From assembly GCA_026874595.1 (NCBI GenBank), contig CM049315.1, positions 12,214,664 through 12,278,663 on the forward strand: a stretch of DNA of 64,000 bases. Reading direction: 5' to 3'. Position 1 is the stretch's first letter; every line of letters begins with the position of its first letter. The position numbers and the translations under genes were made by a program. Below are positions 24,201 through 64,000 of the stretch, piece after piece. Source of the stretch: Sipunculus nudus. Taxonomy: Eukaryota; Annelida; Sipuncula; Golfingiida; Sipunculidae. The notes beneath the pieces were generated by a model. That model had not been told where the DNA came from. It saw nothing but the letters and a program-made list of their open reading frames with translations, and did no database searches.

Positions 24201-27200
24201 TGTTGCCATGCCTGTACATATGAAATCTCTCAACACACATTCTGCATTTTGCATTACATGCATATGGAATCTTAGCTTTAATCTTTCATCATTTAAGCGA
24301 AGTTTAGTTAAAAAGGGGCTTAGCACCTGAAAGTTAGACCACATGTGGCTGTAGTCTCAACCAAGGTGTCAGTTGTCCACTTTACTGATATATACCAGGA
24401 TGCTAATCCAACAGTTCACACTTGATCGTATGACTGAATGTTATCTTGATTTGAAGGTCCCTTTCTGATGGCGGTGTTTAACCGCCTGGAGAGCATGATG
24501 ACCAATTCACTGTACGTGAACCTTCTACTGACTGGGCTGGTGTCGCGACTGGCCTGCTACCCGCAGCCACTGATCCGCTCCTTCCTGCTCAATCACTCGC
24601 TTGTCTTTCAGCCAACCGTCCGATCACTAGTTCAGGTTCGTAGTTATATTTGCATTGATACAGACCTAAGGTTAGGGGGTCAGCTTTGAGAGCGTAATGT
24701 CCAAAATTCAAACTCCACTCATTGAGCCTGATCAAATTTATACTAGATCAGAGAAAGTATTTGTCTGTTGGTGAATGAACTGACCTGGGATAGTCATAGC
24801 TCGCATAGAATATTGAAATGTATCTGTTATTTTGTAATGTTATGTTTTTTTATCCACTGTCATATAACTCTGTTCATGCCTAGAAATAGAATAATGTCTT
24901 CTGTTAACTTTACCACAAACCAGTTGAGCCACTGTCTTGCATATCTTTTTCCATTGTACAATTTGTTTGTGACAGTGATGTTCATCATTAGGATTTATTT
25001 AATTGAAGCGTTAAACATATAAATTTCGTAACCAAGCCCCTGGTTGAATTCATTTACCAGATATGTTAGGTATACATGAAATATAGTATTCTGTCTTAGA
25101 AATACATTAGTATCTGCCAAGATTTTATTCTGAGACCACTTCTTGATGCCTACAGATGAAATAAACTTGAACTAGGCATGGTCAGTTGCACTAAAGAAAA
25201 CATAATGTCCTGTACTACTATCCTACATTAAGAAGGTGAAGAATAGTAAAAAATCTAATTCAAATGTGATTTATGACAAGGAAACCTTCCTTCTTTGATT
25301 ACAAGTTTTTGCACAAGTACAGTATGGCATTTTTGGCCTGGTGGTCTTGTTATAGTCGGACACACATGGGTAGTATTATCAACACACAGAACCGAATCAA
25401 GTAATTACGGAAGATGAAAATAATAGTGTCAAGTGGCTAAGTACCTTTAATCAGAAACATTTTACTGGAATCAGATTTTATTGATGGTTATCCAAACCAA
25501 ATTTTAATTGATTAAAATGTAATTTAAGTAATTTAACCAATGTTTGACAGAATTTACCAGTGCAATGAAAGAATTTCATTGATATTACTGCAGGTTTTAG
25601 GATCTGTGAAACACAAAGTGGACTGCTTCTCATACACAGTCAAGGAGTTTGAGCCACTGATGCAAAAGGCTCGCAAATTTCTGGCGTGGCGTGAGGAAGT
25701 GTTTCGTTGTCAGCGTGATGGCAAGAAGAACTGGGCACATCTTGACAGTCAGCTGTCTCAGCTGGAGGGAAAGAACAAAACAGTGACGAATCTGGCTGAG
25801 CTGCACCAAGGTGAGACTTAAGTCAGGTCTTAGTTGTGAAAAATTGCAAATTCTCCTGGTAAAACACTTAAAAGGGGCAGAAAATAAAGATCTGTACAAA
25901 ATCACAGGAAGGCCTACTTTATCAAATTCACTGTGATAATGTCTGCAGATTAAAAATCTGTTCAACATTCACATGTATAACTTATGGGAACAGCAATGTC
26001 TCCTCAGCTCTGAAGTTCAAAGAGATATTATACAGAGACAGCAATGTCTCCTCAGCTCTGAAGTTCAAAGAGATATTATACAGAGACAGCAATGTCTCCT
26101 CAGCTCTGAAGTTCAAAGAGATATTATACAGAGACAGCAATGTCTCCTCAGCTCTGAAGTTCAAAGAGATATTATACAGAGACAGCAATGTCTCCTCAGC
26201 TCTGAAGTTCAAAGAGATATTATACAGAGACAGCAATGTCTCCTCAGCTCTGAAGTTCAAAGAGATATTATACAGAGACAGCAATGTCTCCTCAGCTCTG
26301 AAGTTCAAAGAGATATTATACAGAGACAGCAATGTCTCCTCAGCTCTGAAGTTCAAAGAGATATTATACAGAGACAGCAATGTCTCCTCAGCTCTGAAGT
26401 TCAAAGAGATATTATACAGAGACAGCAATGTCTCCTCAGCTCTGAAGTTCAAAGAGATATTATACAGAGACAGCAATGTCTCCTCAGCTCTGAAGTTCAA
26501 AGAGATATTATACAGAGACAGCAATGTCTCCTCAGCTCTGAAGTTCAAAGAGATATTATACAGAGACAGCAATGTCTCCTCAGCTCTGAAGCTCAAAGAG
26601 ATATTATACAGAGACAGCAATGTCTCCTCAGCTCTGAAGCTCAAAGAGATATTATACAGAGACAGCAATGTCTCCTCAGCTCTGAAGTTCAAAGAGATAT
26701 TATACAGAGACAGCAATGTCTCCTCAGCTCTGAAGTTCAAAGAGATATTATACAGAGACAGCAATGTCTCCTCAGCTCTGAAGTTCAAAGAGATATTATA
26801 CAGAGACAGCAATGTCTCCTCAGCTCTGAAGTTCAAAGAGATATTATACAGAGACAGCAATGTCTCCTCAGCTCTGAATTTCAAAGAGATATTATACAGA
26901 GACAGCAATGTCTCCTCAGCTCTGAAGTTCAAAGAGATATTATACAGAGACAGCAGTTTCTCTTCATTTCTGAAATTTGCTGAGACAGTGCACAGGGACA
27001 ACAGTGTCTCATTTATAAAATTACCTGAGATAGCATAAAAGGGCAGCAATTTTTTCTCATGTAGCCCATGTGATCTCACCTCTCATGTAGTGATATCACC
27101 TGTAGCCCATAAGTCAGGTGAAATATCATGCAGTACATAAGCTCAGTGAGATCACATGAATTCAGTAAGAACTCATTTAGGGATAGCAAACATGCTGTAT

Positions 27201-37453: not shown

Positions 37454-37618
37454 TCACACATTTGTTCTGTTTTCATTAATTTCACTGCTGTTATCTTCAC
37501 GTTTCCCTTTAAGCAGGTTGGCAACAACAATCCCAAAGAATAACAAAAACCCCAGATTCTTGTTGGACTTGAACTTCTTCAGGCAGTCGTCGGGTTTATT
37601 GATGTCTACTGTATAGAT
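37454..37618 (-). CDS. COQ2: COQ2 exon 7 (last coding exon)
   Basis: Acceptor GATGTATTTCCAG; 165 nt, phase 0, ending in TGA. Reads [20 protein letters not shown], then [19 protein letters not shown], the final membrane helix, and a polar tail. Human COQ2 has the corresponding IYTLDIHRPEDCWNKF and GIVLGNLW. Confidence 0.95.
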   Translation of the reverse strand: MYTVDINKPDDCLKKFKSNKNLGFLLFFGIVVANLLKGKREDNSSEINENRTNV

Positions 37619-40600: not shown

Positions 40601-43600
40601 TTGAATTGTTATCGCACCTCCAAAATGGTCACATCTGTGAAATCAGCTGTAACCACTAATTAAGCAAATCATTCAATTATACTGTACTTGGTGCACTTAA
40701 TGAACTTTTAGTACACGTATATCATGTTTGTGCAGTATGGTGTCATACTGTACTTGGTGTACTTAATAGACTTTCAGTAGACTTGAATATCATGTTTGTG
40801 GATGTATGGTGTCAAATTTTACTTGGTGCATTTACATGATTTTTAATACACTTGCATATCATAATGGTGAATGTATGGTGCCATACAGATAATAAATTCT
40901 AATAAAATATACTTTAGCAAATTACTTCAATTTTGTTTGATAGAAAAAAGGCATGTCAACTTGCATATACTTGAATTTATGCTGCTATTATTATCCATAA
41001 AAATGTCTTTGAAGTGATCCTAAAAAATATGTACCTGTACCTGTACCTAGGTACTTTCTAAAGTACCTGTACCTGTATCTAGGTACTCTGTGAAAATCAA
41101 GTACCTGTACCTGTACCTGGCCAATTCACAAGTAGCTGTACCTGTACCTAGGTACTTTCACTTGTACCTGGCCCCACCCTGGTCATACTGTGTATTATGT
41201 TACCAGTACATATCATGTCATGGGTATGTACTCTAAAGGCCCTGGTTACAAGTTGACATACATATAGGTATAATAATATATGATAACAGTGTACACATAC
41301 TGACAAGGCCAGCACACTCATATATATACACATTCTGCACTGGACCCCTGTCATAAAACAGATGTTCATTTTCAAAGGAAAATTATATACTAGTATATTC
41401 TCTATAACAAATATTATACAAGTTTAAATATGCATGGTTTCCTTATTTATAGGTGACTGTAAATCATTGGAAATTATATTATTGTACACAGGTGGTCTTC
41501 TCAATTATTGCAAAAGATGACGTGAATGAACAAGCAAAAGTTAAAATCCTAGTGACAGTCAAGGATTCCTTAGTTTGCTGAAGCAAAGCTGTCAATCACA
41601 TAAGAGTTAAAGACATGGCATACATGCTTGTCAGCAGTAAAAAAAAAGTCAAACAGATGACAGTATTTAATGAATATAATGAATTAAATAGTATTTTTAT
41701 TGCTCATAAGCTGTGTATTTGGTAAGTAAATAAACATATCTACAGGCTAATCAGGTTTATTTCAGATGACAAAATACTTGTAAGCTGTTTGGCCTTACAA
41801 ACAAAAAGAAACATTTTGTTTCTTTATCAAGATTTTCACTGCAGTTTTGGATATAACTAGGGCTGTCACTCTGGCAAGTTCACTAGACATTTATCCATAA
41901 GAGTGAAAACACTGCCATAATCATTATCAATGTTACCTTCTGTTATTTAGTGTTAAACATACTAAACCTGTGTGATACTGGATTACTGCAGAAGTCACAT
42001 GACCACATTCAACATAAACTATTTTCATCCTCAAGAATTTTAACAGATGACTGACCATGTGACTGATTTAAGTAAAACATACATAAGTGATAGAAGCTGA
42101 TGAGATTATGGATATATGAAAACTGGAAATAAATGTTAGCAGCTTCATAGCAATACTCTCAAACAAGCCTGTGCCCAAAGCATTGCAGCAATCTGTACAT
42201 GCATTTTGTTAAACCCCAAGAAAATAAACTTGAAAAATGCCATCTGCTTTCACATCCAAGAATAATTTAAAATATCTCAGTGCATATTGTTTTAAGCAAG
42301 TTGAGATTTGCATTTTATGCTAATTAAGCTTGTTCTTTACACTTGAAGGAGTGATACAAGCATGAGAACTCTATGTCAGCCAGGAAATGTTCACTTTACT
42401 CACTTGATGTGCATAGATGGTATCATACACCATCGTCCAAGCAATGCCTGACACGTACAACGGCAAAACCGCACCCCAGTCACATGACCCTGCTACTGCA
42501 GACCAGCCAAGTAGGGCCCCCCAGTTAAACGTCATACCTACAGCGACAAGACAAGGTCAGTACAATAAAAGGCTAACATCAAAGCAACCCAACAACCAAT
42601 GATCCATCAGATCATAAAACTGATCACACAGCAAACCAAGACCCAACATCCAACTCTAGCAGGACTTAAAATCTTAACACAGCAACCAAAGAACCAATGT
42701 CCTTAAAGTCACATGATCTCTGATCATTCTCTGATTGGTGGATCAAAATCACCAAAACAAACTGACTGGCTTGAGACAAGATCAATGCTCCCTATTGGAC
42801 AATCATCAGGTGACCAGTGATTGGCTAATTAGTTTGGGCAGCAGTTCCTATTGGCGGCCTGGCCTCAGGGTAATGCTGCTGCTTTTCTGGTTACATGATG
42901 GTTCACATCACCATGCTGGCTTATAAGTGAAGCTCATATTAACCATTTTACATAATAATACATAGGATTCTTGGTATATTGAAAAACAAGCAAACTGAAT
43001 CACCAGAAAAAGCTGTGAAAATCTTCAACACTCAAACACTACACCATTTTTCTTCGGAACATTCAAATTTGAGCATGTGTAGTAATGAGAACTTCTTTTT
43101 ACTGGGGCAAGCTGTCAAACACTGCAAAAAGGAGATGGAACATGCTTGGGCCCTGTATCAGGTTAGGTTTTACTAGGCAGCCTTCAGGCACTGTTTATCA
43201 CTCATGATCCTTGTTGAGGGGGGTTAGGGGTTAGATACCCAACTGACCGTGGAGCATGATGGGCTGAATCATGCAACTGTGAGACTGGGGGCACTATAGA
43301 TTGATGGGCTCCTGTGGCAGGATGCAGTCAGGGGTGCATATACATGGACAATTTTAATCATTTAATAAGCGTGGTCTCTGTTTAATTATGTACATAATTA
43401 CTTTGTGTTAAAAGCAGAATTGTTCTTATTGTACAACAAAATAAATGTTATTTACATGTTTAAAACTGTACATTAAATGATGCAAACTTTCAGTGCGAAG
43501 GTACTTCAGGTTGGTTGCTGTTACAAAAGACACTGTTTTTGCAGTGAGTGCAGTCTCGGTCTCTCAGACAAATCTCACCAGTGGTCTAATTATAACCCAT

Positions 43601-46600
43601 CAAAAGAAACTCCTTATGCAGAAACTGGGTATGACAGAACAAGAAATGAATGAATGTATTCTGATTGTGTATATGTGTTTCAATTTGTATTGCAGACTGC
43701 TTGACAGGCTTAATGGGAAGGGACCCCCCCCCCAAAAAAAAAAAAAAAAAAAAAAAAACTAGTGCCACTTTAGTGGGTTTCTCAGTGTCATGACCCAGCA
43801 ATTTGAGAGATTGTACACCAAGGACCAACATGTCCTGCTGACACTGAGCCTGGTTAACACCAGGATACACACAAGAAGAAAAGTGTGGAACAGCCCTGAC
43901 ATGTAGTCCAAAATCAAAACTAAACATACTTAAATTAAGAGTTGTGAAATCAGAATTTAAAGTGGAGGCAGTTAGCTGGACCAAAAACTAATGAACGAAG
44001 AGACATGAACTACCACATAAATATGAATATATTTGTTGTGGGCTGAAACAACAGATACAAGACACCAGACATGTGACCAATAGGTGCCAGCAGCAGTCCT
44101 CCATGGAACTAAACAAAAGCCCTGGATCATTCTGCCACATCAACCCAGTGGATAAATATGGCAACATGAGAGGTCCCTGTTACGAGTAAGGTGAGAGTCA
44201 ATGAACATGTCCTGAATTCAGGTAGAGCCAGGAGGAGCCTGAGTGGACACCACAATGGGAATGCAGAGGGGCCTTATACATGCTGCCACGATTCAAAGGG
44301 GCACTAGAAAGTCAACTGGTCCAGGTAACACTTACATCTTCAATTCAAAAAACCTCTGAGCAGAAGAGACCAAGGATTATTGAACACAGAGTTGAATTAT
44401 TCACATATTACTTTGATTTAAGATACTTTTTTTCATCTATGTGTGGAAGGGGACCAGGGGTTGGTTTTAGCTTGAGTTTTGACATGAAAAGAGTAAAGCT
44501 CAAGTCTTTAAAGGAGTCTTGATGGGGAAAGCTCTCAAGGTTTTTTAATTTTTTTTTTTTTGTCATCTTACTGCCATGAGTTTACCTTTTCAATTAATGG
44601 TTTTAAACTTTCCAGTCATGTCCTTCGAGTGTCTGACAACTGAGGAAGTCAGTGATGACCATTTGGTAAAACTAATCCTTCAGTCACTTATATTTGACTG
44701 ATGTCTCAGTCATAAACTACACAGTACAATCCTCCAGTAAACTGGTGCCTAATGCAAAGTGTGTAAACCTGGGATATCTAGGATTCAAAAGACCAAATAT
44801 TACTCCCATCTCACAACACAGGATGACATATAACTCTTTCAAGGCTTTCAACAGAAAGGAAAACTGGAGAGTCCAGGATGCCGAGACCAAAACTTTGGAG
44901 AGTCAAATCAGATTCTGAAACATCCTAAGAGGAAGGTGGTCTGTGTTAAAATATTTAAATTTTGAAGGTTTATGTGAAATTAAATCAAATATTGTCGTAT
45001 TTTACTTCATAAGTATATCAATATATGTTTATATATCATATCATGTTATTGTTATATCTAATGTAATTATATGATTTTCCGTTCAAGTGACTGTCAGGGT
45101 TATATTTAGTTGTCAGCACAGTTTTTGACTGGTTTGCTTGAGGTAGTCCACAAAAGTCAGGGTCTTCTAAAAGAGCTATCAATGGTTCTTTAGGTCCTAC
45201 GGCAAGTCATCTGATTGTACACTCAGACACCCAAAATTAAGAGCCCAAAAGAGATTTTGAGCATCATAGACACTTACCCTTGCATTACTTAATAAAGATC
45301 TGTTCATATCAAATTACTGCAGAATATGTGGTGTCTGAGCCACTCAAAACATAGACACTCCAAAACATACTAAATCGGAGGCAAGAAACCTAGATTTACT
45401 GGAGTTTCAGATTAATACAAGCAAGCAGTTATACATGTGTGGAGGTGTGTGAGTGAGTCTTAAGTGAGGATGAGACTACATGATTTACAGAGGATGATTA
45501 AAACACGGCTATATATATACACATATACGTGTGTGTGTGAGGGCTTCAGCCAATGGTCAAACACAAGTACAAGCCCAGTGCCAAGCTCTGAAGGAAAATG
45601 AAAATAGAGCTTGTCCAGAAATGTGAATTTGCAAGACTCAGCTAGACACAAATTTGAAGTATAGAAAACAATGGTATACACACAAAAGCTTATAGACTAC
45701 AAAAGGCTACATGCAGTGCTCAGCTTTACATAATCTGCACAATTTATTAAGGGAAAACTGAGAAAATAATGTGCAGTTCAGTAAGCCATGCAAAAGTATG
45801 TATACAGCACCTTGCATAATAAGTATACAATAAATAATGATTAATTCATATCTATAAGCCTTTTCTTAATGCATATTCATAAGCCAACCTGGTGGGAATA
45901 GATTGTGTCATAGATCATTGTCCACAGGACACAGGATGAGTACTGAATGACCCCAGCCACAGGGACGCTTCCACAGATTGCGGACCAGGCCAACAGAACA
46001 CCCCAGTTAAGTGTGACTCCTGGCAGACACAAACACACACAGGGTCAAATATATGGTTTAATTACATTCAAGGATTTCTGCCAGTTTCATATTAACAAAT
46101 TGGCAAAGATAAATCAAAGACTAGAATAATTTGCATAATCATTTTGTTTGTGGCTGTCTTGTTGTGAATAATTGAACAGATCCATACTGACCTGATTCAA
46201 TATGTGAAGTTGTCCAAAAAGTGATTACAAGCAAACAATCCATGATGGTTTCTGAATCAACTATAAATAGTATAAAAGGCTTTACACTAATTTTTGAAAG
46301 AACATGCCGAGTTGGAGAAGCAACATCTAAAATTTTATTTACCCTACATGAATTAAACTTGTCCTAAAAAAATCATAGATTGCAGCCACAAGTACCAGAA
46401 GTGTGTTCTGCATGATTATCTTAAACATGATCAAATGTTTGTTATTTGATGATCATTCTTTTTGAAAATTGCGCAGATAAAGATACAGTTAATATAAGAA
46501 GGGGTGTAACATATGATTTAATTTCTCCAAGAAAGAAAATGGCTAACTTAATAAATAATTAAGATTCAGACCTTTGTGAACAGGTTTTTTGTTGGACCTA

Positions 46601-49600
46601 CTTGCTCAGTCAGACAAGTTGGAGCCAACTTTTGGTTGCCCTACTGCCATTTTATGGAACTTTTACTTGCCCTTGGTAAATGGTTTACTGTTAATTTTAA
46701 GCTCTGGTATGTGAATGCTACCAGTTTGACTAGCATGGAGGCATGCTACTTTCACAAGCAAATGTGAGCAACTGACAAAAATAAACATCAAAGGCAATGA
46801 GCTGCAAATTTTATATAACTTCATAAATCTTAACAAGGTCAGGAAACTGGTTTTGCTGCTAAGTATTTGTGAATAATTAACAAAGGATTCATAACAAAAT
46901 GGATGCTTCCTGATAACAAGAGAAAGACAATGCCACAGTCAGCTGATTCACACTGTAGTCAGTGTCACCTGTTGGTGACTATTGAAATCTGGTAGGAATT
47001 TATATTGGACCTAAATCTCATCACACACTTTTACTCTAAAGTGAATGAGGGACAAAAGGGCTGATGTGAGATAAAAACTTTATGAAAATAACTAATATCA
47101 TAGTGTTTTTCTATTTTATTGCATTTCTAAAATCTTTTGTGAGGTATGGTATTGGTTTTATCCAAGGTATTAAGGCTGTGTCTCTTTCCTCACTTGTGTC
47201 TCAAATGGTTTTGGAGGCTGTCTGCTAATTTAAAAATATTTCCAAATATCACTGACCACCCACTGGTGGAACAGGCTGGGCAAGAGAAACTAACAATAAA
47301 TAAATTTTTTAATATATAAATTGAAAGGTCAAATTGTAAGGAAATGTGCTCTGATAACTGGGGTTAGAATGTCTGCCCTAACCTAGCTAACATTTGGTCT
47401 GCTGTGCTTTAAAAAGCCACCACTAGTGAGACACTTACCTAGCACCACCTGTGGCCAGTATGTGAACCGCTTGGCCAGCGGATACAGGATCACCAAGACC
47501 ATGGAGGAGGCTCCCAAGAACACGCTGCAGTCACAGAACATACAACATTATAGGAGGCTCCCGAGAACACGCTGCAGTCACAGAACATACAACATTATAG
47601 GAGGCTCCCAAGAACATGCTGCACTCACAGAACATACAACATTATAGAAGGCTCCCAAGAACACACTGCACTCACAGAACATACAACATTATAGGAGGCT
47701 CCCAAGAACACGCTGCAGTCACAGAACATATGACATTATTGGAGGCTCAACAGAACACGCTGCAGTCACAGAACATACAACATTAAAGGAGGCTCAACAG
47801 AACACGCTGCAGTCACAGAACATACAACATTATAGGAGGCTCCCAAGAACACGCTGCACTCACAGAACATACAACATTATAGGAGGCTCCCAAGAACATG
47901 CTGCAGTCACAGAACATACAACATTAAAGGAGGCTCCCAAGAACATGCTGCAGTCACAGAACATATTACATTATAGGAGGCTCCCAAAAACTCGCTGCAG
48001 TCACAGAACATACAACATTATAGGAGGCTCCCAAGAACACGCTGCACTCACAGAACATACAACATTATAGGAGGCTCCCAAGAACACGCTGCACTCACAG
48101 AACATACAACATTATAGGAGGCTCCCAAGAACACGCTGCACTCACAGAACATACAACATTATAGGAGGCTCCCAAGAACACGCTGCACTCACAGAACATA
48201 CAACATTATAGGAGGCTCCCAAGAACACGCTGCACTCACAGAACATACAACATTATAGGAGGCTCCCAAGAACACGCTGCAGTCACAGAACATACAACAT
48301 TATAGGAGGCTCCCAAGAACACGCTGAAGTCACAGAACATACAACATTAAAGGAGGCTCAACAGAACACGCTGCACTCACAGAACATACAACATTATAGG
48401 AGGCTCCCAAGAACACGCTGCGGTCACAGAACATACAACATAATAGGAGGCTCCCAAGAACACGCTGAAGTCACAGAACATACAACATTAAAGGAGGCTC
48501 CCAAGAACATGCTGCAGTCACAGAACATATTACATTATAGGAGGCTCCCAAAAACTCGCTGCAGTCACAGAACATACAACATAATAGGAGGCTCCCAAGC
48601 ACATGCTGCACTCAAAGAACATACAACATTATATGAGGCTCCTAAGAACACCCTGCAGTCACAGAACATACAACATTATAGAAGGCTCCCAAGAACACGT
48701 TGCAGTCACAGAACATATGACATAGGAGGCTCCCAAGAACATGCTGAAGTTGTATAACATACTATGTTATAGCAAGTTCTCAAGAACATGCTGCAGTCAC
48801 AGAACATACAATATTATAGGAGGCTCCCAAGAACATGCTGCAGTCACAGAACATACAACATTATAGGAGGCTCCCAAGAACACACTGCAGTCACAGAACA
48901 TACAACATTATAGGAGGCTCCCAAGAACACGCTGCAGTCACAGAACATACAACATTAAAGGAGGCTCCCAAGAACACACTGCAGTCACAGAACATACTAC
49001 ATTATAGGAGGCTCCCAAGAACATGCTGCGGTCACAGAACATACAACATTAAAGGAGGCTCCCAAGAACACGCTGCACTCACAAAACATACAACATTATA
49101 GGAGGCTCCTAAGAACATGCTGCAGTCACAGAACATACAACATTATAGAAGGCTCCCATGAACACGTTGCAGTCACAGAACATACAACATAGGAGGCTCC
49201 CAAGAACATGCTGAAGTTGTATAACATACTATGTTATAGCAGGTTCTCAAGAACATGCTGCAGTCACAGAACATACAACATTATAGGAGGTTCTCAAGAA
49301 CACGCTGCAGTCACAGAACATACAACATTATAGGAGGCTGCCAAGAACACGCTGCAGTCACAGAATATACAACATTATAGGAGGCTCCCAAGAACACGCT
49401 GCAATCACAGAACATACAACATTATAGGAGGCTACCAAGAACACACTGCAGTCACAGAACATACAACATTATATTAGGCACCAAAGAACCGGATGCAGTC
49501 ACAGAACATACAATATTATTGTGGGACAACTCAAACCATTCATAGTCAGAGTGATTGACCAGCTGACTGTCTCCAAGGCCAGGAGGAGGCCCATGTACAG

Positions 49601-52600
49601 ACCAATGTCATAAGACAGGCTAACAAAAACACCCCTAAATACGACAACAAACATGAACAACCTAGGTAATGTGAGAGGCTGCCAAGGACACTGGGAAAAC
49701 ATTAAAATAACTCATATATCAAACCAGGAAAATATGTGATTTGGGTGCTGCCAAATTTTAATATTAAAGTTTATTTATATATATGTCACAAATTCTATAA
49801 AGACATGAATAAAAACAGAATAGGACATCCCACCAAAATTAAACAGTTTTTAATGAAGCTGGTTTCCTCAAAACACCTCACAGCATATTTTCACATCTTT
49901 TGACTTTTGTAACAGTATATTTTCTACATCTTTTGACTTTTCTAACAGCATATTTTCTACATCTTTTGACTTTTCTAACAGCATATTTTCTAAATCTTCT
50001 GAACTTTCTAACAGCAAAATTTCTACATCTTATGACTTTTCTAACAGCATACTTTCTTCATCTGCCCGTACTTCCTTTTAGTCTATCACACAGTTTAATC
50101 AGGTGTCAGTTTGACTTGATTTCAGTGAGCTGGTCCGAAACCAAATTAATCTAAAGCTGTCTGTGTATGCACAAGCAACAAAGGCAGACAGTGTGAAAAC
50201 TGGTGATCTCCTCTCTGTATGCTGGCCAGTAAATGTTTTTCATTCATGATAGGCTTCAATGTGCAAAGATTTGTGACTGAAGTTTCCAACAAAATGACAA
50301 ATAACTGCTGTTCATCTTGAAATCAACTTTTTAAAACAAAGTTAGTATATGAACATCATATAATGTGTTTGGACTGAGTAAAATGAGTGGAATTATACAT
50401 ATATGAGAAATTTAAGAAATTCTATTAAATTCACTGGATTTAATATAACTATATCTGCTGAGTTAAATGAATAATGGGGCCATACATAGATAGACTAGTT
50501 TGAAATGACCATGAAAGTATTAGTAAGGGTGGTCCTACCTGTACCAGTTAAATGTAAGCAGAATGGCCAGACTTGCTGAGAGCTGAGCTCCTAGAAACAC
50601 CAGTGCTTGAAAATGAGTCAATGCTCCACTTGCCAGAGGTCGGTCCTTGGTGCGAGTCACCTGGATCATTGATAACAGTAAAAGAAACTAAACATACAGG
50701 CAGTACATTCAGGTAAATGTATACACCAAAGTTACTGAAAGGTACATAAACATTTGCAATAATATGAGTATTATCTCTCACTGTCAGTTCTCTTTGGCTG
50801 TATATAAATTTTCCTTGCAAACCACCCATGTAGGACAGTACTGATGTGGGCATTATGTTTAACAGCCACCATGCCGTGTTGGCACTATGTTTATGCTTTA
50901 CCCTACTAATCACACCAGGTGCAAGTTTATTTCCTATTACTTTTATTGATTACTTGTAAATATTTAATAAACCCATATGATACAGTAATCTATATAATTA
51001 ATACACAGTTTAGTTTTTTCTACTCAATGGTATACCTGCTTCCAATCTGATTTGACTTCAAATTCTGCACATGTCATCTGTGTCTTTTTCAAGGACCAGA
51101 CCTGTTGCCCTACCACCGTTTGACATAATTTTAATGGGTTTACAGGGCTGTTGTTATCTTTATTAACTAGAATACAGGTAGTCGACAAGTGACTACGTGT
51201 ATCCGCCAAAATCAGGGTAGGACGGGTGAAGTGAGGTATGGATTGAGTGGCAAGGGGAAATAGAGTTACATGTGTTACATATTAGAATGGATCTCTGCCA
51301 CATAAACATGATTGTAGGTGGCGCCACCTGTTATTTCAACGAGACACTATCCAAGATGTATACACATGCAAAATTTCAGGTGGAAAAGTCAAACCACTGC
51401 AGAGATATGAGTGATTTTACCTGTGCAAAAATGGCTGCAGGTGGCGCCACCATTTTTGTGTATGTTATTAAGCTATCCAAGGGCTACATTTGTAAAAATA
51501 TTTTTTCCTGATTGGTCAAACGAGTCCGGAGATATAAGCATTAATGTCTGCAGCGTGAACGTGAATGAAGCTGGCGCCACCTGTCAATAAATTAAGAAAG
51601 CTATCCAGGATGTATACGCATTCCGAATTACAGGTAATTTGGTCAAACCACAGCAGAGATATGAGTGATTTTAACCCAAGGCAGACAAACAGATGGACGC
51701 TGTGCAAAAATGGCTGCAGGTGGCGCCACCATTTTTGTGTATGTTATAAAGCTATCCAAGGGCTACATTTGTGTAAAATTTTTTTCCTTATTGGTCAAAC
51801 GAGTCCAGAGATATAAGCATAAATGTCTACAGCGTGATCGTGAATGTAGGTGGCACCACCTGTCATAAAATCAAGAAAGCTATCCAGTGTGTATATGCAT
51901 GCCAAATTACAGGTAATTTGGTCAAACCACTGCATCGATACGAGTAATTTTAACCCAAGGCAGACAAACAGATGGATGCTGTGCAAAAATGGCTGCAGGT
52001 GGCGCCACCATTTTTGTGTATTTATACAGCTATCCAAGGGCTACATTTGTGTAAAATTTTTTTCGAGATTGGTCAAACGTTTCCTGAGATATGAGCTTGT
52101 ATGTCTGCAGCCTTAACTTGAATGTAGGTTGCGCCACCTGTCATAATATCAAGAAAGCTATCTAGGATGTAATGGCATGCCGAATTTTAAGTGAATTAGT
52201 CAAATCACTGCAGAGATATGAGTGATTTTAACCCAAGGCAGATGAACAGATGAACACTGTGCAAACATGGTTGCAGGCGGCACCACCTTTTTTTTGTGTA
52301 TGTTATAAAGCTATCCAAGGGCTACATTTGTGTAAAAATTTTTTCCTGATTGGTCAAACGGTTCCTGAGATATGTGGGTTTATGTGTGGAAACAGACGCA
52401 CAAACGGATGCTGGGCAGAGAGGAAAAGTCAGAGGTCAAGGCCACTTGGTTAGGCAACAGTTCACATGAAAAATCCTTTCAGTAGTCTCAGAGGTGTTCT
52501 TCGGACACGAACGCGGCGGCGGAACCCGGTCAAAAACATAGTATTCGCTAAAACTTCGTTTTGGCGGATGCAATAATTATCTTTTCATGTTAACCATGGT

Positions 52601-55086
52601 CTTAACAGTTCAGCAAAGGGTTGTTCAAAAAGAAGTCTCACAACTGAAACACAGTTAGGGGGGGGGGGGGGGTGCACATATTTTCTTTAGCATTCTCAAT
52701 CTCCAGGGATGTTCAAAACATATTACCAGTACATCTTTACATTTATATATAGAAATTCCAATAACAAACTAGACTATATAATCTTAGCCCAGAAACCTCT
52801 CCCAGAATCTCCTTAAATTCATGTTCATGTGTACACCTTTCATGTGTAAACACTGTCACCAGGAGTGACGCAGGTTCACCTGGTTAAGTGGCATAACAAA
52901 TACATAAGAATGAGTTGCTTCTACACAGAAACAAAGTAATCATCTTTTAGCATAATGTAACCAGTATATCATTATTATATTGTGATTTTGATAACCTCCT
53001 AAATTTAATGGATTATCCATACAATTTATTCTAACTATCAACAAAATCTGTACATAACTTTTGGCATTAATGTAATTAGAGATAAAGCAAAAATAGATGT
53101 TAGCATGCCTTTTTAATTGGGAGAGTTGTGAGTTTTCAATAAGACATGTTTATTCCATGATAATCAATAAAGGCCAACCTGTAATACTTTTGAATCTATT
53201 TTAAAAGTTTTTTACTCTGCCTGTTCTTTCTCAACGGCAGCTACATGTTGCATTTTACGTGCAACAGCCTTTAACAACATACAAGCATGTGTCTGTTAAC
53301 AAGCCTAATACTAAAGTGAACTTATAACTAAAACCATAGTTTTTCATGATGTCTTCATATTTTTTGCAAAGTATCTTCCTAAAACTTTCACTTTACTATA
53401 TAGCTATATAATTCATTCCAATTATTTTCTGACAGGTTTCTGTAAACCACTGTTACATAATTATCATATTGTCATCACTCCAGAAATTATGACGTAGTAC
53501 AAATGTTGTGTATTTGAAAAAAAAACAGTCTCACCTAAAATCTGTACACATTATATAATATATGCTTCAGTCTTTTTCTCCAGTGTAGTTCTTTATGCCA
53601 TATCCTTAATATCATTATTTGGAAAATTCTAGCCCTAATGATCCTTATATCATGTATGTGGACCACATGCAAAAGTCCCAGCAAAAAGCTCAGGTTTAAA
53701 ATATATGACATTCTGTCCCAAACAGCTCCTAACAAAACTGTTTATCTTACAGAACTGTGGATTTTTCACAGGTACATCTAGTACATTAATAATTACATAT
53801 GCTGACACTGACTGCTGAAACAAAATGGAACTTACTCTTTTGTCAAAGTCATGATCCCACATGTCATTAATTGTACACCCGGCCCCTCTCATCAGGAAAG
53901 CCCCAAGACCAAACAGCGCTAACATCTGCAGGTCTGGAAGGCTGCCAGGGGGCGCTGCCAGTCCTATACTCCACATACAAGGTATATACAACAGCCAAGT
54001 CCCTGTAATGATGAAAAATTCACCAACTGATGTTCATGACATGCTGTCTGCCACTCTGCCTTGATCTATCTGACATTTTAACTATGACTGTATTGGGTCT
54101 CTTCTGGTGTCTTTTCATATTCTCATATTTTCATATCTACATCTGTGTTAGGGTATTGATCACCATTACTGTATCACATCAACTTTGTTTTACTTTCAGC
54201 CTCCATGTACTCTTTCAGATATCATTTTGATTATGATATTATTATTATGTAACCACTGTGTAATACCACAGGTTTTATATATCAATCTGAAATTATCCAC
54301 TCTGTTAAACCACTGGTAATTTCATACAATAAATGTCAGAGCATCTGTAAAGCTTATTTTCTGTTTTGTTCCTACAGGTACTCAAATAGAATACATGTCT
54401 CCCTATAGAGCAAAGTAGAATATATCATGGAAGAAAAATTACTAAAATATGTGAGCACTACCACTACAACACTACTACACTGGTCACATGACACCAACAT
54501 TATTGCCAAGCCATTAAATAAACACTTAACCATATGACTTCTACTTACCGATTGGTCGATCAGCTCTCATTAAACGGAGGTAAGGCTGCATGTAGTTTGG
54601 TGACGAATCCACTAAAGCTTGTGGCGAGAAGCTCAGCTCTCTGTGAGGGGACCTGGTCAGACTGATCCGTTCAGATGATGTGTTTGTAAACATGTGATTC
54701 CTGGTCCAGCAGGAATGCCAGCGTTCATGTCCAGTCACAGGTCCCTGACCAGTGGTCAAGTTACATTTAAGGAGTGAATGTTGGTTAACATTCTCTGGCC
54801 TAAATGTGTCAAATTTATTTTTGTTCATACAATGTACAGCTGTTGTAATAGTTCCTAATAATTTTCTGTTGTTCTGCAGCAACACATTTTTCATGCACAA
54901 ATTGTGGTATTTACACACTGTACGTATTTTGTCTGAATGTTTTGTGGACAGTAAGGCTGGCCTTGTTATACGGGCCATCACTAATTTTGTAAAGTTTCTC
55001 TGACACTGTGTTAACATCCTGGTCTTACAAGACATTTTAAAACACAGTGCTGAGTACTGTATCATTCTATTAATCCCTGCATCCAT
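37454..55086 (-). CDS. COQ2: COQ2, 4-hydroxybenzoate polyprenyltransferase, complete, with two alternative exons 5
   Basis: COQ2 is the mitochondrial inner-membrane UbiA-family enzyme that attaches the polyprenyl tail to 4-hydroxybenzoate in ubiquinone synthesis. Exons on the minus strand: 54549-55086, 53836-54002, 50539-50660, 47439-47524, then either 45889-46019 or 42404-42537, then 38421-38609 and 37454-37618. With 42404-42537 the protein is 466 residues, with 45889-46019 it is 465. The first Asp-rich motif [11 protein letters not shown] is in exon 2; the second, YDTIY(A/S)HQDKEDD, is formed across the exon 5/6 junction, so the alternative exon contributes half of an active-site motif. The N-terminus is long, basic and rich in Ser/Thr, as expected for mitochondrial import. 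All junction phases agree, including the split codons. Confidence 0.96.
37619..38420. other. COQ2 intron 6
   Basis: AT-rich intron with no repeat or RNA gene recognised. Confidence 0.7.
38421..38609 (-). CDS. COQ2: COQ2 exon 6
   Basis: Acceptor TTTTAACTACAG, donor CATCAG|GTGGGT; 189 nt, phase 0 to 0. Starts [19 protein letters not shown], which completes the second Asp-rich motif begun by exon 5, then [20 protein letters not shown] and [15 protein letters not shown], two membrane helices. Directly comparable to human [20 protein letters not shown]. Confidence 0.96.
39240..39990. repeat. degenerate interspersed repeat in COQ2 intron
   Basis: The phrase GTGACCT(T/C)TGACCTCAT with AAATATG(C/T) recurs at about 39470, 39610 and 39770 (variant GTGACCTTATTAAATATG), giving decayed units of 140-160 bp. 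It resembles the GTTTGACC-type repeats elsewhere in the window but I cannot classify it. Confidence 0.45.
40331..41189. mobile_element. hAT-type non-autonomous transposon with 8-bp target duplication
   Basis: The 843-bp element at 40339-41181 starts CAGGGCTGGGGCCAGGTAC; the opposite strand of its right end reads CAGGGTGGGGCCAGGTAC, so the inverted ends match over ~18 bp with one base missing. It is flanked by perfect 8-bp direct repeats, GTCATACT at 40331-40338 and 41182-41189. CAGGG ends plus an 8-bp duplication are diagnostic of the hAT superfamily. Inside each end are arrays of ACCTGTACCT and the palindrome GTACCTAGGTAC, likely transposase-binding subterminal repeats. The AT-rich centre has three diverged tandem units ('ATACTGTACTTGGTG' at about 40679, 40746 and 40811). 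It encodes no transposase and lies in the COQ2 intron between exon 5 (proximal) and exon 6. Confidence 0.92.
41190..42403. other. COQ2 intron downstream of proximal exon 5
   Basis: No gene or named repeat. One TGCATG (minus strand; CATGCA at 42198-42203) lies about 200 nt past the donor of the proximal exon. Confidence 0.5.
42404..42537 (-). CDS. COQ2: COQ2 exon 5, proximal version (ubiquinone type)
   Basis: Acceptor GTCTTGTCGCTGTAG, donor CATCAA|GTGAGT; 134 nt, enters in phase 1 and leaves in phase 0. Reads [20 protein letters not shown], then [20 protein letters not shown] and HQ. This closely follows vertebrate COQ2 ([18 protein letters not shown] ... YDTIYAHQ), including Phe in TFNWG and Ala in YAHQ. 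It is therefore taken as the canonical, ubiquinone-making version. Confidence 0.95.
43725..43759 (+). repeat. poly-C/poly-A tract
   Basis: About ten C followed directly by about 28 A, with a single-strand purine/pyrimidine bias. Could be the decayed 3' tail of a retroposed element, but no element body is recognisable next to it. Confidence 0.85.
45710..45792 (-). promoter_or_regulatory. two TGCATG splicing-enhancer candidates downstream of distal exon 5
   Basis: CATGCA at 45710-45715 and 45787-45792 on the plus strand reads TGCATG in the transcript. UGCAUG is the binding site of Rbfox proteins, which from general knowledge promote inclusion of an exon when bound within a few hundred bases downstream. 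Function here is inference. Confidence 0.35.
45889..46019 (-). CDS. COQ2: COQ2 exon 5, distal version (rhodoquinone type)
   Basis: Acceptor TGTGTGTTTGTGTCTGCCAG, donor CACCAG|GTTGGC; 131 nt, phase 1 to 0, equivalent in position and framing to the proximal exon. Reads [20 protein letters not shown], then [20 protein letters not shown] and HQ. Relative to the proximal version, TFNWG becomes TLNWG and YDTIYAHQ becomes YDTIYSHQ, while the middle ([13 protein letters not shown]) diverges freely. From memory, the helminth COQ-2e exon needed for rhodoquinone carries the same F to L and A to S changes. The open, conserved ends argue that it is functional and not a dead copy. Confidence 0.93.
46020..47438. 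other. COQ2 intron 4
   Basis: No gene or named repeat recognised. Immediately upstream of the distal exon the transcript has a UG-rich tract. Confidence 0.6.
47439..47524 (-). CDS. COQ2: COQ2 exon 4
   Basis: Acceptor CTGTGACTGCAG, donor GTGCTAG|GTAAGT; 86 nt, entered in phase 2 and left in phase 1. Completes NWYS from exon 3 and reads [20 protein letters not shown] then TYWPQVVLG, matching human ALGAGSLLLVITYPLMKR and YWPQLALG. Its first ~20 bases and its acceptor are the template for the 47-bp array that follows immediately on the plus strand. Confidence 0.95.
47505..49520. repeat. 47-bp minisatellite made from a COQ2 splice acceptor
   Basis: About 42 tandem copies of a 47-bp unit. On the plus strand each is AGGAGGCTCCCAAGAACACG, then CTGCAGTCACAGAACATACA, then ACATTAT. 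The first unit begins inside COQ2 exon 4 and runs across its acceptor into the intron, so each copy, read on the minus strand, is a ~27-nt intron end (TTGTATGTTCTGTGACTGCAG minus its first base) plus the first 20 nt of the exon. Variants include CTCAACAG for CTCCCAAG and CACTCACAG for CAGTCACAG. A distinctive unit containing TGTATAACATACTATGTTAT occurs at 48751 and 49218, about ten units apart, showing block duplication. Frames at 47426-49101 arise from the repeat. Confidence 0.95.
49521..50538. other. COQ2 intron 3 remainder
   Basis: Includes a small tandem repeat at 49880-50070 (about five copies of a ~33-bp unit with TCTAACAGCATATTTTCTAC and ATCTTTTGACTT). Otherwise unremarkable AT-rich intron. 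Confidence 0.6.
49880..50070. repeat. ~33-bp tandem repeat
   Basis: Five imperfect copies of a 33-bp unit (AACAGCATATTTTCTACATC then TTTTGACTTTTCT). The plus frame across it, a leucine/threonine repeat, is not considered coding. Confidence 0.85.
50539..50660 (-). CDS. COQ2: COQ2 exon 3
   Basis: Acceptor ATGATCCAG, donor GGTACAG|GTAGGA; 122 nt, phase 0 to 2. Reads [20 protein letters not shown] then [20 protein letters not shown], matching human [20 protein letters not shown] and FLGGQLTLALG. Continues the first active-site loop after [11 protein letters not shown]. Confidence 0.96.
50661..51177. other. COQ2 intron 2, 3' part
   Basis: Non-coding; no named repeat before the element at 51178. 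Confidence 0.5.
51178..52571 (-). repeat. mobile element with ~278-bp internal tandem repeats, copy 2
   Basis: The inverted counterpart of the element at 15010-16910. Four units are marked by GTGCAAAAATGGCTGCAGG-like cores at 51423, 51702, 51981 and 52259 (spacing 278-279 bp), with GGTGGCGCCACC in each. The end 'GTAGTCGACAAG' to 'GGACGGGTGAAGTGAGG' at 51178-51240 matches the opposite strand of 16850-16910. Short inverted ends are visible: ATCCGCCAAAA near 51199 and TTTTGGCGGAT near 52560. I found no clear target duplication. It lies in the COQ2 intron between exons 2 and 3. Confidence 0.75.
52572..53835. other. COQ2 intron 2, 5' part
   Basis: Holds a G14 tract at about 52659-52672 and otherwise plain AT-rich intron. 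Confidence 0.5.
52659..52672 (+). repeat. poly-G tract
   Basis: Uninterrupted run of about 14 G in intronic DNA. Confidence 0.9.
53836..54002 (-). CDS. COQ2: COQ2 exon 2, first Asp-rich motif
   Basis: Acceptor TCATCATTACAG, donor AAAAGA|GTAAGT; 167 nt, phase 1 to 0. Reads [20 protein letters not shown], then [20 protein letters not shown] and MWDHDFDKR. The NDxxDxxxD pattern is the Mg-diphosphate binding motif of UbiA prenyltransferases. Nearly identical to human COQ2 over [13 protein letters not shown]. Confidence 0.97.
54003..54548. other. COQ2 intron 1
   Basis: 546 bp, no repeat or RNA gene recognised. Confidence 0.8.
54549..55086 (-). CDS. COQ2: COQ2 exon 1, mitochondrial leader
   Basis: Donor CCAATCG|GTAAGT. 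The ATG at 55086 is the first in the open frame and gives 179 codons before the junction; internal ATGs at residues 8 and 18 are alternatives. The first 50 residues have many Lys/Arg, Ser and Thr with a single early Asp, consistent with a mitochondrial presequence, and the end [16 protein letters not shown] is the conserved start of the enzyme (human PYLRLMRLDKPIG). The leader is longer than in human and is not otherwise conserved. Confidence 0.85.
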
Positions 55087-60798: not shown

Positions 60799-61891
60799 TT
60801 ATACCTTAATAGAGTGCCACCTGTCATAGAAAAGATCTGTGTTTCCTTTTCGCACAAATATATTAAACTCAATATTTCGAATATTATTCAGGTATTTTTT
60901 TAATCTGTCAAATGATAGTTTTTGATTCTGTGGCCTGCTCTGATAAATGTAACACTTGGTTAAGATAATGAATAAATTGATACTAACACCATAATTAGGA
61001 TTCCCCAAGAGTACATCATTTTTGTCCAGAATATAATTTTGCTCAGATTCTGAATAGATAGGTATTGATTTCTGCCAAATGTGTTGAACACATAAACAAG
61101 ACCAGTAAAGATGCTCAACAGTCAGTCTCCAGTTGACAAAATGTACAGAGATTATTATCTATTATTCCCCATTTGTTTAACCAATAAATATTAGCTGAAA
61201 TATTGTGCAATATTTTAAACTGAAAACATCTGGTTTTAGTATCTATACAAACTTTGAAAGCTAACTGAAAGACTTTCTCCCAGTCAATCTTTTCCAAACT
61301 ACATGTATCACAAAATCTAAAAATTCTTGGGACAAGGTGTTTACATTTAGAATCTACTGAGCTGACCAATATTTCATAAATCTTTTTTGAATTACAGGAT
61401 TTCAGATCTAATACTTTACCATTATCAAGTTCACCTAAAGTAAAACTAGGAATTTCTTCCTTTGAGTTAATCCTCTCTGTTTCTAGATACATACATGAAC
61501 TTTTTACTTTTTTAACAATTGCCCTCCATTTTATATACTCTAACAATTTAACACCTCTATTCTGCCATGTGATGAAGGGCACAACATTTCCATTATTATC
61601 AAATGCATCTTTAACATAAATCAGCCCATCCTCATACAAACTCTTACTGAAATAAACTTTGCTGCATGAGCCTATATTCTCATTAAAACAAATGACTTGA
61701 TGCATGAAGCTTTTCTTGTATCTAACTTTATTCCAGGCTTTTAAGAGATCTATATAGAATATATTTACATTAAGCATTGAAATAAATTCATTACTACATT
61801 CACATTTTAACAAAAGGCTCAGATCCATTCCATTATCTTTAAATATCTTATCCCAAATAATCATCAGCTGATTCTCTCTATTTTTTTTCAT
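60799..61891 (-). pseudogene. LINE C-terminal region with Cys-rich motif, frameshifted
   Basis: Frames 61115-61891 and 60799-61008 are successive parts of one protein: the first stops just after CTFCQLETDC and the continuation (EHLYW) lies in another frame. The WLNKWGI...CTFC pattern is typical of the region after the reverse transcriptase in L1-like elements. One frameshift near 61117 separates the parts. Confidence 0.85.
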
Positions 61892-62256
61892 ATTTTTTCA
61901 GCCATGAAATTAAATATGTTTGTATCACACTTTCTGTATGAGGTACATTCAGTCCTCCATATTTTATTGGTTGTATCATTAAAGTTCTTTTAAGTTTTTC
62001 CTTTTTTGAGTTCCATAGAAACTCAAATATTGTTCTGTTTATTTCCAACAGATATTTTCTGGGTACTGTGATGCATGTAAAAATATACTGGAATTTGGAT
62101 ATAAGATATGACTTAATTATTTGTATTTTACCAATTAAGGTCAAATTTCTAGTTTTCCAGATCTGGGCAGCTATTTTTATCTTCCTTATTATCTCATCGA
62201 AATTCAGATGGACAGCTTTTTCTACATTACATGAAAAATATATACCTAATATTTAA
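61878..62256 (-). pseudogene. LINE post-RT region, broken frame
   Basis: Contains LIGKIQIIKSYLISKFQYIF and FEFLWNSKKEKLKR with YGGLNVP, all usual in the thumb/post-RT region. An in-frame TAA near 62251 separates it from the RT segment, and a frame change at about 61885 from the downstream part. Confidence 0.85.
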
Positions 62257-62772
62257 ATACCATCTTCTGGCCATTTTATATGTAAGGGTTTTGTGAGTTC
62301 ATTTCTTTTTGAGCCTATCCACATTGCTTCCGTTTTATTAATATTCAATTTTAATCCTGATACCTTTCTAAATTTGTCTGCTTCTCTTAATAATTCTTTT
62401 GCCGATTCAATATTTTTAACTACTGCTATTATATCATCAGCGAATAACATCAGCTTTATTTCTCGACCATAAATATCTACTCCTATAATTTTTTTTATTT
62501 TTTCTAATCTTTATTGCTAAAAGTTCTATGCACAGAATAAAGAGATATGGGGATAAAGGATCGCCTTGGCGCACTCCTCTCTTTACGGGAAAATATTGGG
62601 AAGTTGTTCCATTATTAATGACACAGCTGCTTATATTGTTATATAGGGTTTTTATCCAGGTAATAAAGGATGCTCCAAAATTGAAAAATTTTAATACAGA
62701 AATTAAAAAAGGCCATTCCAAGCTGTCAAAAGCTTTCTCATAATCTAATGCAAGAATTAGGCCTTCCATCAT
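62253..62772 (-). pseudogene. LINE reverse transcriptase core, frameshifted
   Basis: Motif A (ALDYEKAFDSLEW) and motif B (RGVRQGDPLSPYLFILC) are in the frame 62437-62772; motif C (LFADD) and motif D (GLKLNINKTEAMW) are in 62253-62450. The frame changes between them at an A/T-homopolymer near 62490. All catalytic aspartates are still present, so decay is recent or mild. Confidence 0.92.
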
Positions 62773-63491
62773 ATGTTCTTCTGTATGTAAAATTACTTCA
62801 TTTAGTAGCCTTATATTAGTAAATATATCCCTTCCTTTTACGTAACCTGTTTGATTTAAATGAATTTATTTTGGAATAACCTTTTGCAATCTGAGAGACA
62901 ATGCTTTCGCTCCAATTTTGTAATCCACATTTAGTAGTGAAATTGGTCTCCAATTTTGTATCTTTGTGCGGTCTTTATTTTTATCAATCATAGTAATAAT
63001 AGCTTGTCTTTGCGAAGCTGATAGTTCACCAATTTCACTTGAATAATTAAAACAATCCACTATGTATTTTCCAAAGATATGCCAAAATTTTTTATAGAAT
63101 TCAGCATTAATACCATCATTTTCTGGGCTTTTATTTGTTTTCATTAACAACAGTGCTTTATAGCATTCTTCTTGGGTTAGTTTCCCATCACACTGACTCT
63201 GATCTTCATCATTCAGGATCGTTTCATTATCATTATTCATATAATTTTGTATTGGTGATTCATGTTCATTCAATGTGGATGAATATAACTTTTCATAATA
63301 ATTGGAAGTCTGATATAAAATATCATTTTCATTAACAACAATCCCTCCATCTTCCAAAATAATTTCTTTATGGTCTTTTTAGCGGAGTTCCTTTTTTCTA
63401 GATTTAAAAAATATTTATTATTTTTCACCCCTAATTCATACCACCTTATTTTGGATCTTAGTATTGTTCCTTCTATTTTTTTTATTTTCAA
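62773..63491 (-). pseudogene. LINE region between endonuclease and RT, broken
   Basis: Frames 62866-63357 and 63270-63491 contain RWYELGVKNNKYFLNLEKRN, a NSAKKTIKKL stretch and, closer to the RT, TQEECYKALLLMKTNKSPEN with DGINAEFYKKF and NWRPISLLNVDYKI. These are the usual N-terminal RT blocks (motif 0/1). At least two frame breaks are present, near 63300 and near 62860. Confidence 0.88.
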
Positions 63492-64000
63492 TTATTTCTA
63501 ATTCTTGTTTTTTCTCATCTATTTTCTTTTCAAGGGATTCAATCTCTATCACATCTCTAGCTATAGCAATTTGGTTTTGTAATAACTGAATATTTTCTTG
63601 TAAATCCTTCTCCTTGTCCTTTTTTATTTTTGCTTTTTGTTTTCCGTATCTGATTGAACATTGTCTTATCTTATATTTCAGGAATTCCCATATTATCCTT
63701 GGGTCTTTAACTGATTCTATTTCTTTAAGCCAATTTGTTTTACTGTCGATTATAGTTTTAATGTATTCAGCTTCCTCTAAAAAGGATGTATTTAATTTCC
63801 AAAGACCCTTTCCTTTTTTGATTCAACTTGATGCCCCACAGACAGAATAACTGGATTGTGATCACTGTGTCTGGTATACAAAATATTAACATCAATGATG
63901 GCATCATACATATATCTAGATATGAACCAATAATCTAATCGTCTATATATTTTAGACTTTCTCCTACTCCATGTGTACCGTCTTTCATTGGGATATTTCA
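63492..64000 (-). pseudogene. LINE endonuclease C-terminal part
   Basis: Reads YTWSRRKSKIYRRLDYWFIS and then ILYTRHSDHNPVILSV, the signature end of an exonuclease-endonuclease-phosphatase domain. A stop follows shortly at about 63796, upstream of a lysine/glutamine-rich coiled segment, so this copy is inactivated here as well. The catalytic N-terminal half lies outside the window. Confidence 0.85.

What the first reader, a model, noticed from the sequence alone, without database searches (positions are those of the whole stretch)
42404..46019. Two phase-locked, mutually exclusive versions of COQ2 exon 5
Seen: 45889-46019 and 42404-42537 encode the same segment of the enzyme, each with good splice sites, both entered in phase 1 and left in phase 0. 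Lengths are 131 and 134 nt. Including both, or neither, shifts the frame, so exactly one can be used. Known: helminths that make rhodoquinone use alternative coq-2 exons (the 'a' and 'e' forms) to choose between ubiquinone and rhodoquinone precursors. Inference: this animal can make rhodoquinone and controls it by splicing.
Basis: partly seen in the sequence, partly recalled or inferred. Interest (0 to 1): 0.92.

Follow-up and report, generated by a model that had tools for sequence, protein, structure and literature searches.

The report
Peanut-worm COQ2 gene with exon switch
A marine peanut worm's gene for making coenzyme Q carries two interchangeable versions of one exon, the pattern that other worms and molluscs use to choose between electron carriers for breathing with and without oxygen; it extends a known mechanism to another animal.

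Summary
The minus strand codes for COQ2 in seven exons (55086-37454), and exon 5 exists twice: 5e (46019-45889, 131 nt) and 5a (42537-42404, 134 nt). Only transcripts with exactly one of them stay open; both, or neither, give an early stop. Both isoforms exceed the cut-off for 4-hydroxybenzoate polyprenyltransferase. 5a has Phe and Ala, 5e Leu and Ser, at the two positions by which Tan et al. 2020 separate the UQ ('a') from the RQ ('e') exon.

Contig statistics match Sipunculus nudus (Annelida). A search found no second animal COQ2. Exons like TDO, KMO, kynureninase, HAAO and AOX are present, so the precursor route to RQ is probably there.

This is a new member of a known kind, published for nematodes, flatworms, molluscs and other annelids; no held paper joins rhodoquinone and sipunculans. 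Splicing and rhodoquinone are not shown here. By-product: the intron before exon 4 holds 31 extra copies of exon 4's splice acceptor, all unproductive.

The parts
54549..55086 (-). COQ2 exon 1 (from the first in-frame ATG; long N-terminus, true start uncertain), donor GTAAGT
   Evidence: the UbiA match begins further in
53836..54002 (-). COQ2 exon 2, holds the first Asp-rich motif (NDMWDHDFD; motif name recalled)
50539..50660 (-). COQ2 exon 3
47505..49519 (-). 47-bp minisatellite (43 copies by TRF) at the end of intron 3; its last unit runs 20 bases into exon 4; the unit copies exon 4's 3' splice site plus the first bases of exon 4; 31 decoy acceptors by one pattern, each followed by a stop
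47439..47524 (-). COQ2 exon 4, common exon before the switch, ends after one base of a codon
45889..46019 (-). exon 5e (131 nt), e-form: [12 protein letters not shown]...IYSHQ; Leu and Ser at the two marker positions
   Evidence: criteria from PMC7434440
42404..42537 (-). exon 5a (134 nt), a-form: [12 protein letters not shown]...IYAHQ; Phe and Ala at the two marker positions
   Evidence: criteria from PMC7434440
38421..38609 (-). COQ2 exon 6, common exon after the switch; its first Asp completes the second Asp-rich motif (YDTIYxHQD; motif name recalled)
37454..37618 (-). COQ2 exon 7 with stop codon

Best explanation
This is the COQ2 gene of Sipunculus nudus, with the a/e exon switch. One pre-mRNA is spliced to include either 5a or 5e. 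COQ2a prenylates 4-hydroxybenzoate and leads to ubiquinone. COQ2e has a remodelled core of the same enzyme, accepts 3-hydroxyanthranilate from the kynurenine pathway and leads to rhodoquinone. Messages with both exons or neither hit an early stop and would be destroyed or yield a truncated protein. Shown here: the exons, the frames, the stops, the marker residues, and exons of the pathway genes. Inferred from homology: that both isoforms are made, their substrate preference, RQ production and any oxygen control.
For: Exact exon borders and phases. Both spliced isoforms exceed the NCBIfam equivalog cut-off (275.45) for 4-hydroxybenzoate polyprenyltransferase, at 391.4 and 384.5 bits, and match Pfam UbiA. 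Phe-to-Leu and Ala-to-Ser at the two positions named by Tan et al.; these lie 39 residues apart in 5a, as 204 and 243 do in C. elegans, and the Ala is third from the exon's end as described in PMC12403961. Of 56 differences between 5a and 5e in 44 codons, 28 are at third positions (one-sided p = 0.007), as expected if both copies were kept as protein. The other two host genes that matched UbiA look by eye like COX10 and UBIAD1 (the latter best matches MenA-type models), and a COQ2 query found no second animal copy. Exons matching TDO, KMO at two loci, kynureninase at two loci, below that model's cut-off, HAAO and AOX are present. The same switch is reported in other annelids (PMC7434440, PMC12403961).
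Against: No transcript or quinone data. 5e is one codon shorter than 5a, whereas both C. elegans exons are 134 nt. The Ser of 5e is a weak marker: PMC12403961 reports no clear pattern for it in its annelids, and the archaeal enzyme 4od4 has Ser at that place in the alignment. Siboglinid annelids keep the e exon although most of their kynurenine pathway was not found, so the exon alone does not prove RQ synthesis. None of the 12 kynureninase matches passes the curated cut-off, since they come exon by exon, and that model also rang below its cut-off in 4 of 14 control genomes, so related enzymes are not excluded. AFMID was not searched. Species identity rests on assembly statistics.
Confidence: 0.88

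Rival explanations
1. The two exons are used mutually exclusively, but the e-form serves another purpose (tissue-specific tuning of ubiquinone synthesis, or a different aromatic substrate), and S. nudus makes little or no rhodoquinone.
For: Siboglinids keep the e exon without a complete kynurenine pathway (PMC12403961); no held paper joins rhodoquinone with sipunculans.
Against: Both marker residues fit; exons matching TDO, KMO and kynureninase are present; in C. elegans removing exon 6e leaves essentially no detectable RQ (PMC7434440).
Confidence: 0.09
2. 5e is a relic: a duplicated exon that is no longer spliced in, kept open by chance.
For: Its donor is the weakest of the gene's seven (6 of 9 matches to MAG|GTRAGT, the others 7 or 8); no RNA evidence.
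Against: Open in the used frame and in no other forward frame, intact borders, third-position bias, motif YDTIYxHQ kept and both marker residues kept. A weak donor is also common for a regulated exon (recalled).
Confidence: 0.03

Closest known systems
coq-2 exons 6a/6e of C. elegans and the matching exon pairs of parasitic helminths, molluscs (Crassostrea virginica, Biomphalaria glabrata) and Capitella (Tan et al. 2020, PMC7434440; outline, passages and section 8 seen)
   Same: Same enzyme segment, homologous exon pair, Phe/Ala in a and Leu/Ser in e; as in C. elegans (134 nt each) the lengths are 3n+2, so exactly one fits the frame
   Different: 5e is 131 nt, one codon shorter than 5a; the animal is a sipunculan; no RNA or RQ data here. 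Exon lengths in the other species were not seen
COQ2 e and a exons of Alvinella and siboglinids (Lamellibrachia, Paraescarpia) (PMC12403961; passages seen)
   Same: Annelid gene with tandem e and a exons
   Different: S. nudus has exons matching TDO, KMO and HAAO, which were not detected in siboglinids; here the Ala/Ser position also follows the rule of Tan et al., for which that paper saw no clear pattern

Membership tests
COQ2 a/e mutually exclusive exon switch | Gene is COQ2 (4-hydroxybenzoate polyprenyltransferase) | tested here: met
   TIGR01474 391.4 and 384.5 bits against cut-off 275.45; UbiA
COQ2 a/e mutually exclusive exon switch | Two homologous internal exons for the same segment, with splice sites | tested here: met
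   25 of 44 residues identical, far beyond 2000 shuffles; AG/GT borders
COQ2 a/e mutually exclusive exon switch | a-form exon keeps Phe204 and Ala243 (C. elegans numbering) | tested here: met
   MTFNWG and IYAHQ, 39 residues apart (rule)
COQ2 a/e mutually exclusive exon switch | e-form exon has Leu204 and Ser243 | tested here: met
   VTLNWG and IYSHQ; the Ser is a weak marker by itself
COQ2 a/e mutually exclusive exon switch | Only one of the two exons fits the frame | tested here: met
   Spliced in script: both exons or neither give an early stop
COQ2 a/e mutually exclusive exon switch | Mutually exclusive inclusion in RNA | not testable with these tools
   No RNA reads held
Animal rhodoquinone synthesis via the kynurenine pathway | Genes that make 3-hydroxyanthranilate (TDO or IDO, AFMID, KMO, KYNU) | tested here: inconclusive
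   TDO: 5 exon matches, 2 over the cut-off; KMO: matches at two loci on C3; KYNU: matches at two loci on C5, 0 of 12 rows over the cut-off; AFMID and IDO not searched; expression unknown
Animal rhodoquinone synthesis via the kynurenine pathway | Rhodoquinone present | not testable with these tools
   Needs mass spectrometry

The most novel reading that the evidence does not exclude
The 2-kb array with 31 decoy copies of exon 4's own splice acceptor, in the intron just before the exon that feeds the a/e switch, acts as a length-variable rheostat. Each decoy leads to a stop, so the repeat number in an individual sets how much productive COQ2 message is made and perhaps which exon 5 is taken, coupling quinone choice to a hypervariable minisatellite.
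Probability: 0.06. Interest if true: 0.65.

Novelty: new member of a known kind. Interest (0 to 1): 0.42.

Why it matters
Sipunculus nudus is a classic animal for anoxia physiology (recalled). The gene makes it directly testable whether its anaerobic mitochondria use rhodoquinone and whether oxygen sets the exon choice. Sipunculans are usually placed among the early annelid branches (recalled); an intact e exon there favours presence of the switch in the annelid ancestor, which bears on the question, left open by Tan et al., of one origin or several in animals. If both forms work, the switch tolerates a one-codon length difference.

Tried and rejected
Host identity: I first took the animal for a mollusc. 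A combined pattern for the mollusc miRNAs miR-1984/1985 gave 0 matches (no positive control was run), molluscan haemocyanin gave none and the annelid erythrocruorin linker gave none; both family searches rang in 0 of 14 control genomes, so they show little. The match came from contig lengths against PMC10212961. Urechis unicinctus also has 17 chromosomes but 1,138.6 Mb and N50 68.3 Mb (abstract), which does not fit. A search for the mitochondrial genome by COX1 gave only bacterial-looking genes and one short match on C5.

KMO: a degenerate pattern for a recalled KMO motif gave 0 matches with up to 1 mismatch; the protein query then found two loci, so the pattern was a false negative.

RNA pairing across the introns that could force exclusive choice, as in Dscam (recalled): 17 inverted-repeat pairs, 11 of them poly(A)/poly(T); no shuffle control was made, so this is inconclusive. 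Bacterial source of the gene: rejected, since the gene has introns and lies in an 80-Mb chromosome.

Full report
OBSERVATION. The minus strand of 55086-37454 codes for COQ2 in seven exons with AG/GT borders at each intron. Exon 5 is present twice: 5e at 46019-45889 (131 nt) and 5a at 42537-42404 (134 nt), both after exon 4 (ends 47439) and before exon 6 (starts 38609). Both are entered after one base of a codon and left at a codon border. Joined in a script, 5e alone gives 465 aa and 5a alone 466 aa. With both, the stop is bases 4-6 of 5a; with neither, a stop comes within the first 14 bases of exon 6. By these coordinates introns of 1419, 3351 and 3794 nt separate exon 4, 5e, 5a and exon 6, so spacing does not prevent joining 5e to 5a; the frame does the excluding.

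NOT CHANCE. The two peptides share 25 of 44 aligned residues; the score is 139 against a maximum of 38 in 2000 shuffles. Of 418 open AG..GT intervals of the right phase and size in the window, only 5a, 5e and one border variant of each resemble 5a. A tblastn of both peptides against the window found no third copy; beyond the two exons the best E-value was 0.059, inside the minisatellite described below. Of 56 nucleotide differences in 44 codons, 28 are at third positions (one-sided p = 0.007 against one third); third positions may be saturated, so this is a floor.

WHICH FORM IS WHICH. Tan et al. (PMC7434440; passages, section 8) name two positions, Phe204 and Ala243 in C. elegans, that become Leu and Ser in all e exons they examined. 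In 5a, Phe and Ala lie 39 residues apart, the same spacing; in 5e they are Leu and Ser, with one residue fewer between them. The Ala/Ser position is third from the exon's end, as PMC12403961 describes (passages). That paper finds the first position more diagnostic, and the archaeal enzyme 4od4 also has Ser at the second in the alignment, so the Ser alone should not be given much weight. Both isoforms keep YDTIYxHQ plus the Asp of exon 6, which I take for the second Asp-rich motif (recalled), so both look catalytically competent. They score 391.4 and 384.5 bits against TIGR01474, cut-off 275.45.

ORGANISM. G000 has 17 contigs over 60 Mb, together 1,396,941,356 of 1,426,538,692 bases (97.93%), with N50 80,869,746 (lengths; sums). 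I saw the lengths of only some of the other 136 contigs, but together they hold under 30 Mb. The published Sipunculus nudus assembly is 1,427 Mb, 17 chromosomes, 97.91% anchored, scaffold N50 80.87 Mb (PMC10212961, abstract). I take the window to be from S. nudus, which NCBI places in Annelida, Sipuncula. The identification rests on these numbers, not on a sequence match, and the anchored share differs in the second decimal.

GENE COPIES AND PATHWAY. The UbiA search listed 30 matches: 2 from this gene, 2 from one gene on C2 that looks by eye like COX10, 1 from a gene on C15 that looks like UBIAD1 (best models are MenA-type), and 25 on contigs from C61 upward that I take to be bacterial. A COQ2 query found no second animal copy among 20 matches; the tool warns that a missing match does not show absence. 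Exons matching TDO lie on C10 (5 rows, 2 over the cut-off). Exons matching kynureninase lie at two places on C5, with none of 12 rows over the cut-off and the model ringing below its cut-off in 4 of 14 controls, so this assignment is the weakest. KMO exons lie at two places on C3 (11 of 14 rows, best 64% identical to human). HAAO lies on C3 (3 rows over the cut-off) and AOX on C12 (4 rows over the cut-off); these two models rang in 0 of 14 prokaryote controls. Thus the precursor 3-hydroxyanthranilate can probably be made, unlike in siboglinids, where TDO and KMO were not detected (PMC12403961). AFMID and IDO were not searched.

MECHANISM. The best reading is the known one: exon 5a gives an enzyme for 4-hydroxybenzoate and ubiquinone; exon 5e gives an enzyme for 3-hydroxyanthranilate and rhodoquinone. 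In C. elegans deletion of 6e leaves essentially no detectable RQ, and in Ascaris and Strongyloides the e share rises in the host. For S. nudus, splicing, substrate and oxygen control are inferred. The 5e donor (CAG|GTTGGC) is the weakest of the gene's seven (6 of 9 to consensus), which would suit regulated inclusion but equally a decaying exon.

LITERATURE. 'Sipunculus nudus' with 'rhodoquinone', and 'sipuncul' with 'rhodoquinone', gave 0 papers in the held open library; most subscription papers are not held, so older biochemical work may exist. 'Annelid' with 'rhodoquinone' gave 16 papers (listing seen, two of them read in passages). In the genome paper a search for 'coq2' and 'quinone' found neither in the main text.

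BY-PRODUCT. The last 2 kb of intron 3 is a 47-bp minisatellite, 43 copies by TRF, whose last unit runs 20 bases into exon 4. Its unit contains the acceptor of exon 4 and the first bases of exon 4. The pattern GCAG before [CT][GA]TGTTCT finds 32 sites, one of them the real acceptor; each of the 31 others runs into a stop before exon 4's end. Other patterns count 25, 20 and, for a strict 32-base match, 4 sites. The acceptor itself seems to have been caught up in the amplification.

VERDICT. Observation confirmed, interpretation supported, a new member of a known kind.

Noticed in passing
window 47505-49519 (minus-strand intron 3 of COQ2): 47-bp minisatellite (43 copies by TRF) made of copies of exon 4's own 3' splice site and exon start: 31 decoy acceptors by one pattern, each leading to a stop.
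   Followed up: partly
G000 contigs such as C61, C62, C66, C72, C74, C75, C89: The assembly holds bacterial-looking contigs (C61 is 2.17 Mb) that look like several strains of one bacterium. One of its UbiA-family proteins, by eye a haem O synthase, is at best 58% identical to the 4 relatives found in genome contigs, all MAGs. C89 holds two copies of this gene and of a COX1-type gene about 2.04 Mb apart.
   Followed up: partly
G000 C3 (28.97 and 73.58 Mb) and C5 (7.58 and 73.41 Mb): KMO-like and kynureninase-like exons, the two steps that make 3-hydroxyanthranilate, occur at two loci each; the kynureninase matches are below that model's cut-off.
   Followed up: no
window 25872-27082: A tandem repeat of a 16-residue unit (DSNVSSALKFKEILYR) open for over 340 codons in three frames, two on the plus and one on the minus strand; probably a minisatellite, and its weak Pfam matches look like repeat artefacts.
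   Followed up: no
window 60799-63822, minus strand: LINE-like element in several open pieces, one with a reverse transcriptase domain (RVT_1, E 1.8e-18).
   Followed up: no
window 22288-23586, plus strand: 432-codon open stretch without obvious repeats and with no Pfam match at E 0.001, perhaps a large exon of a neighbouring gene.
   Followed up: no
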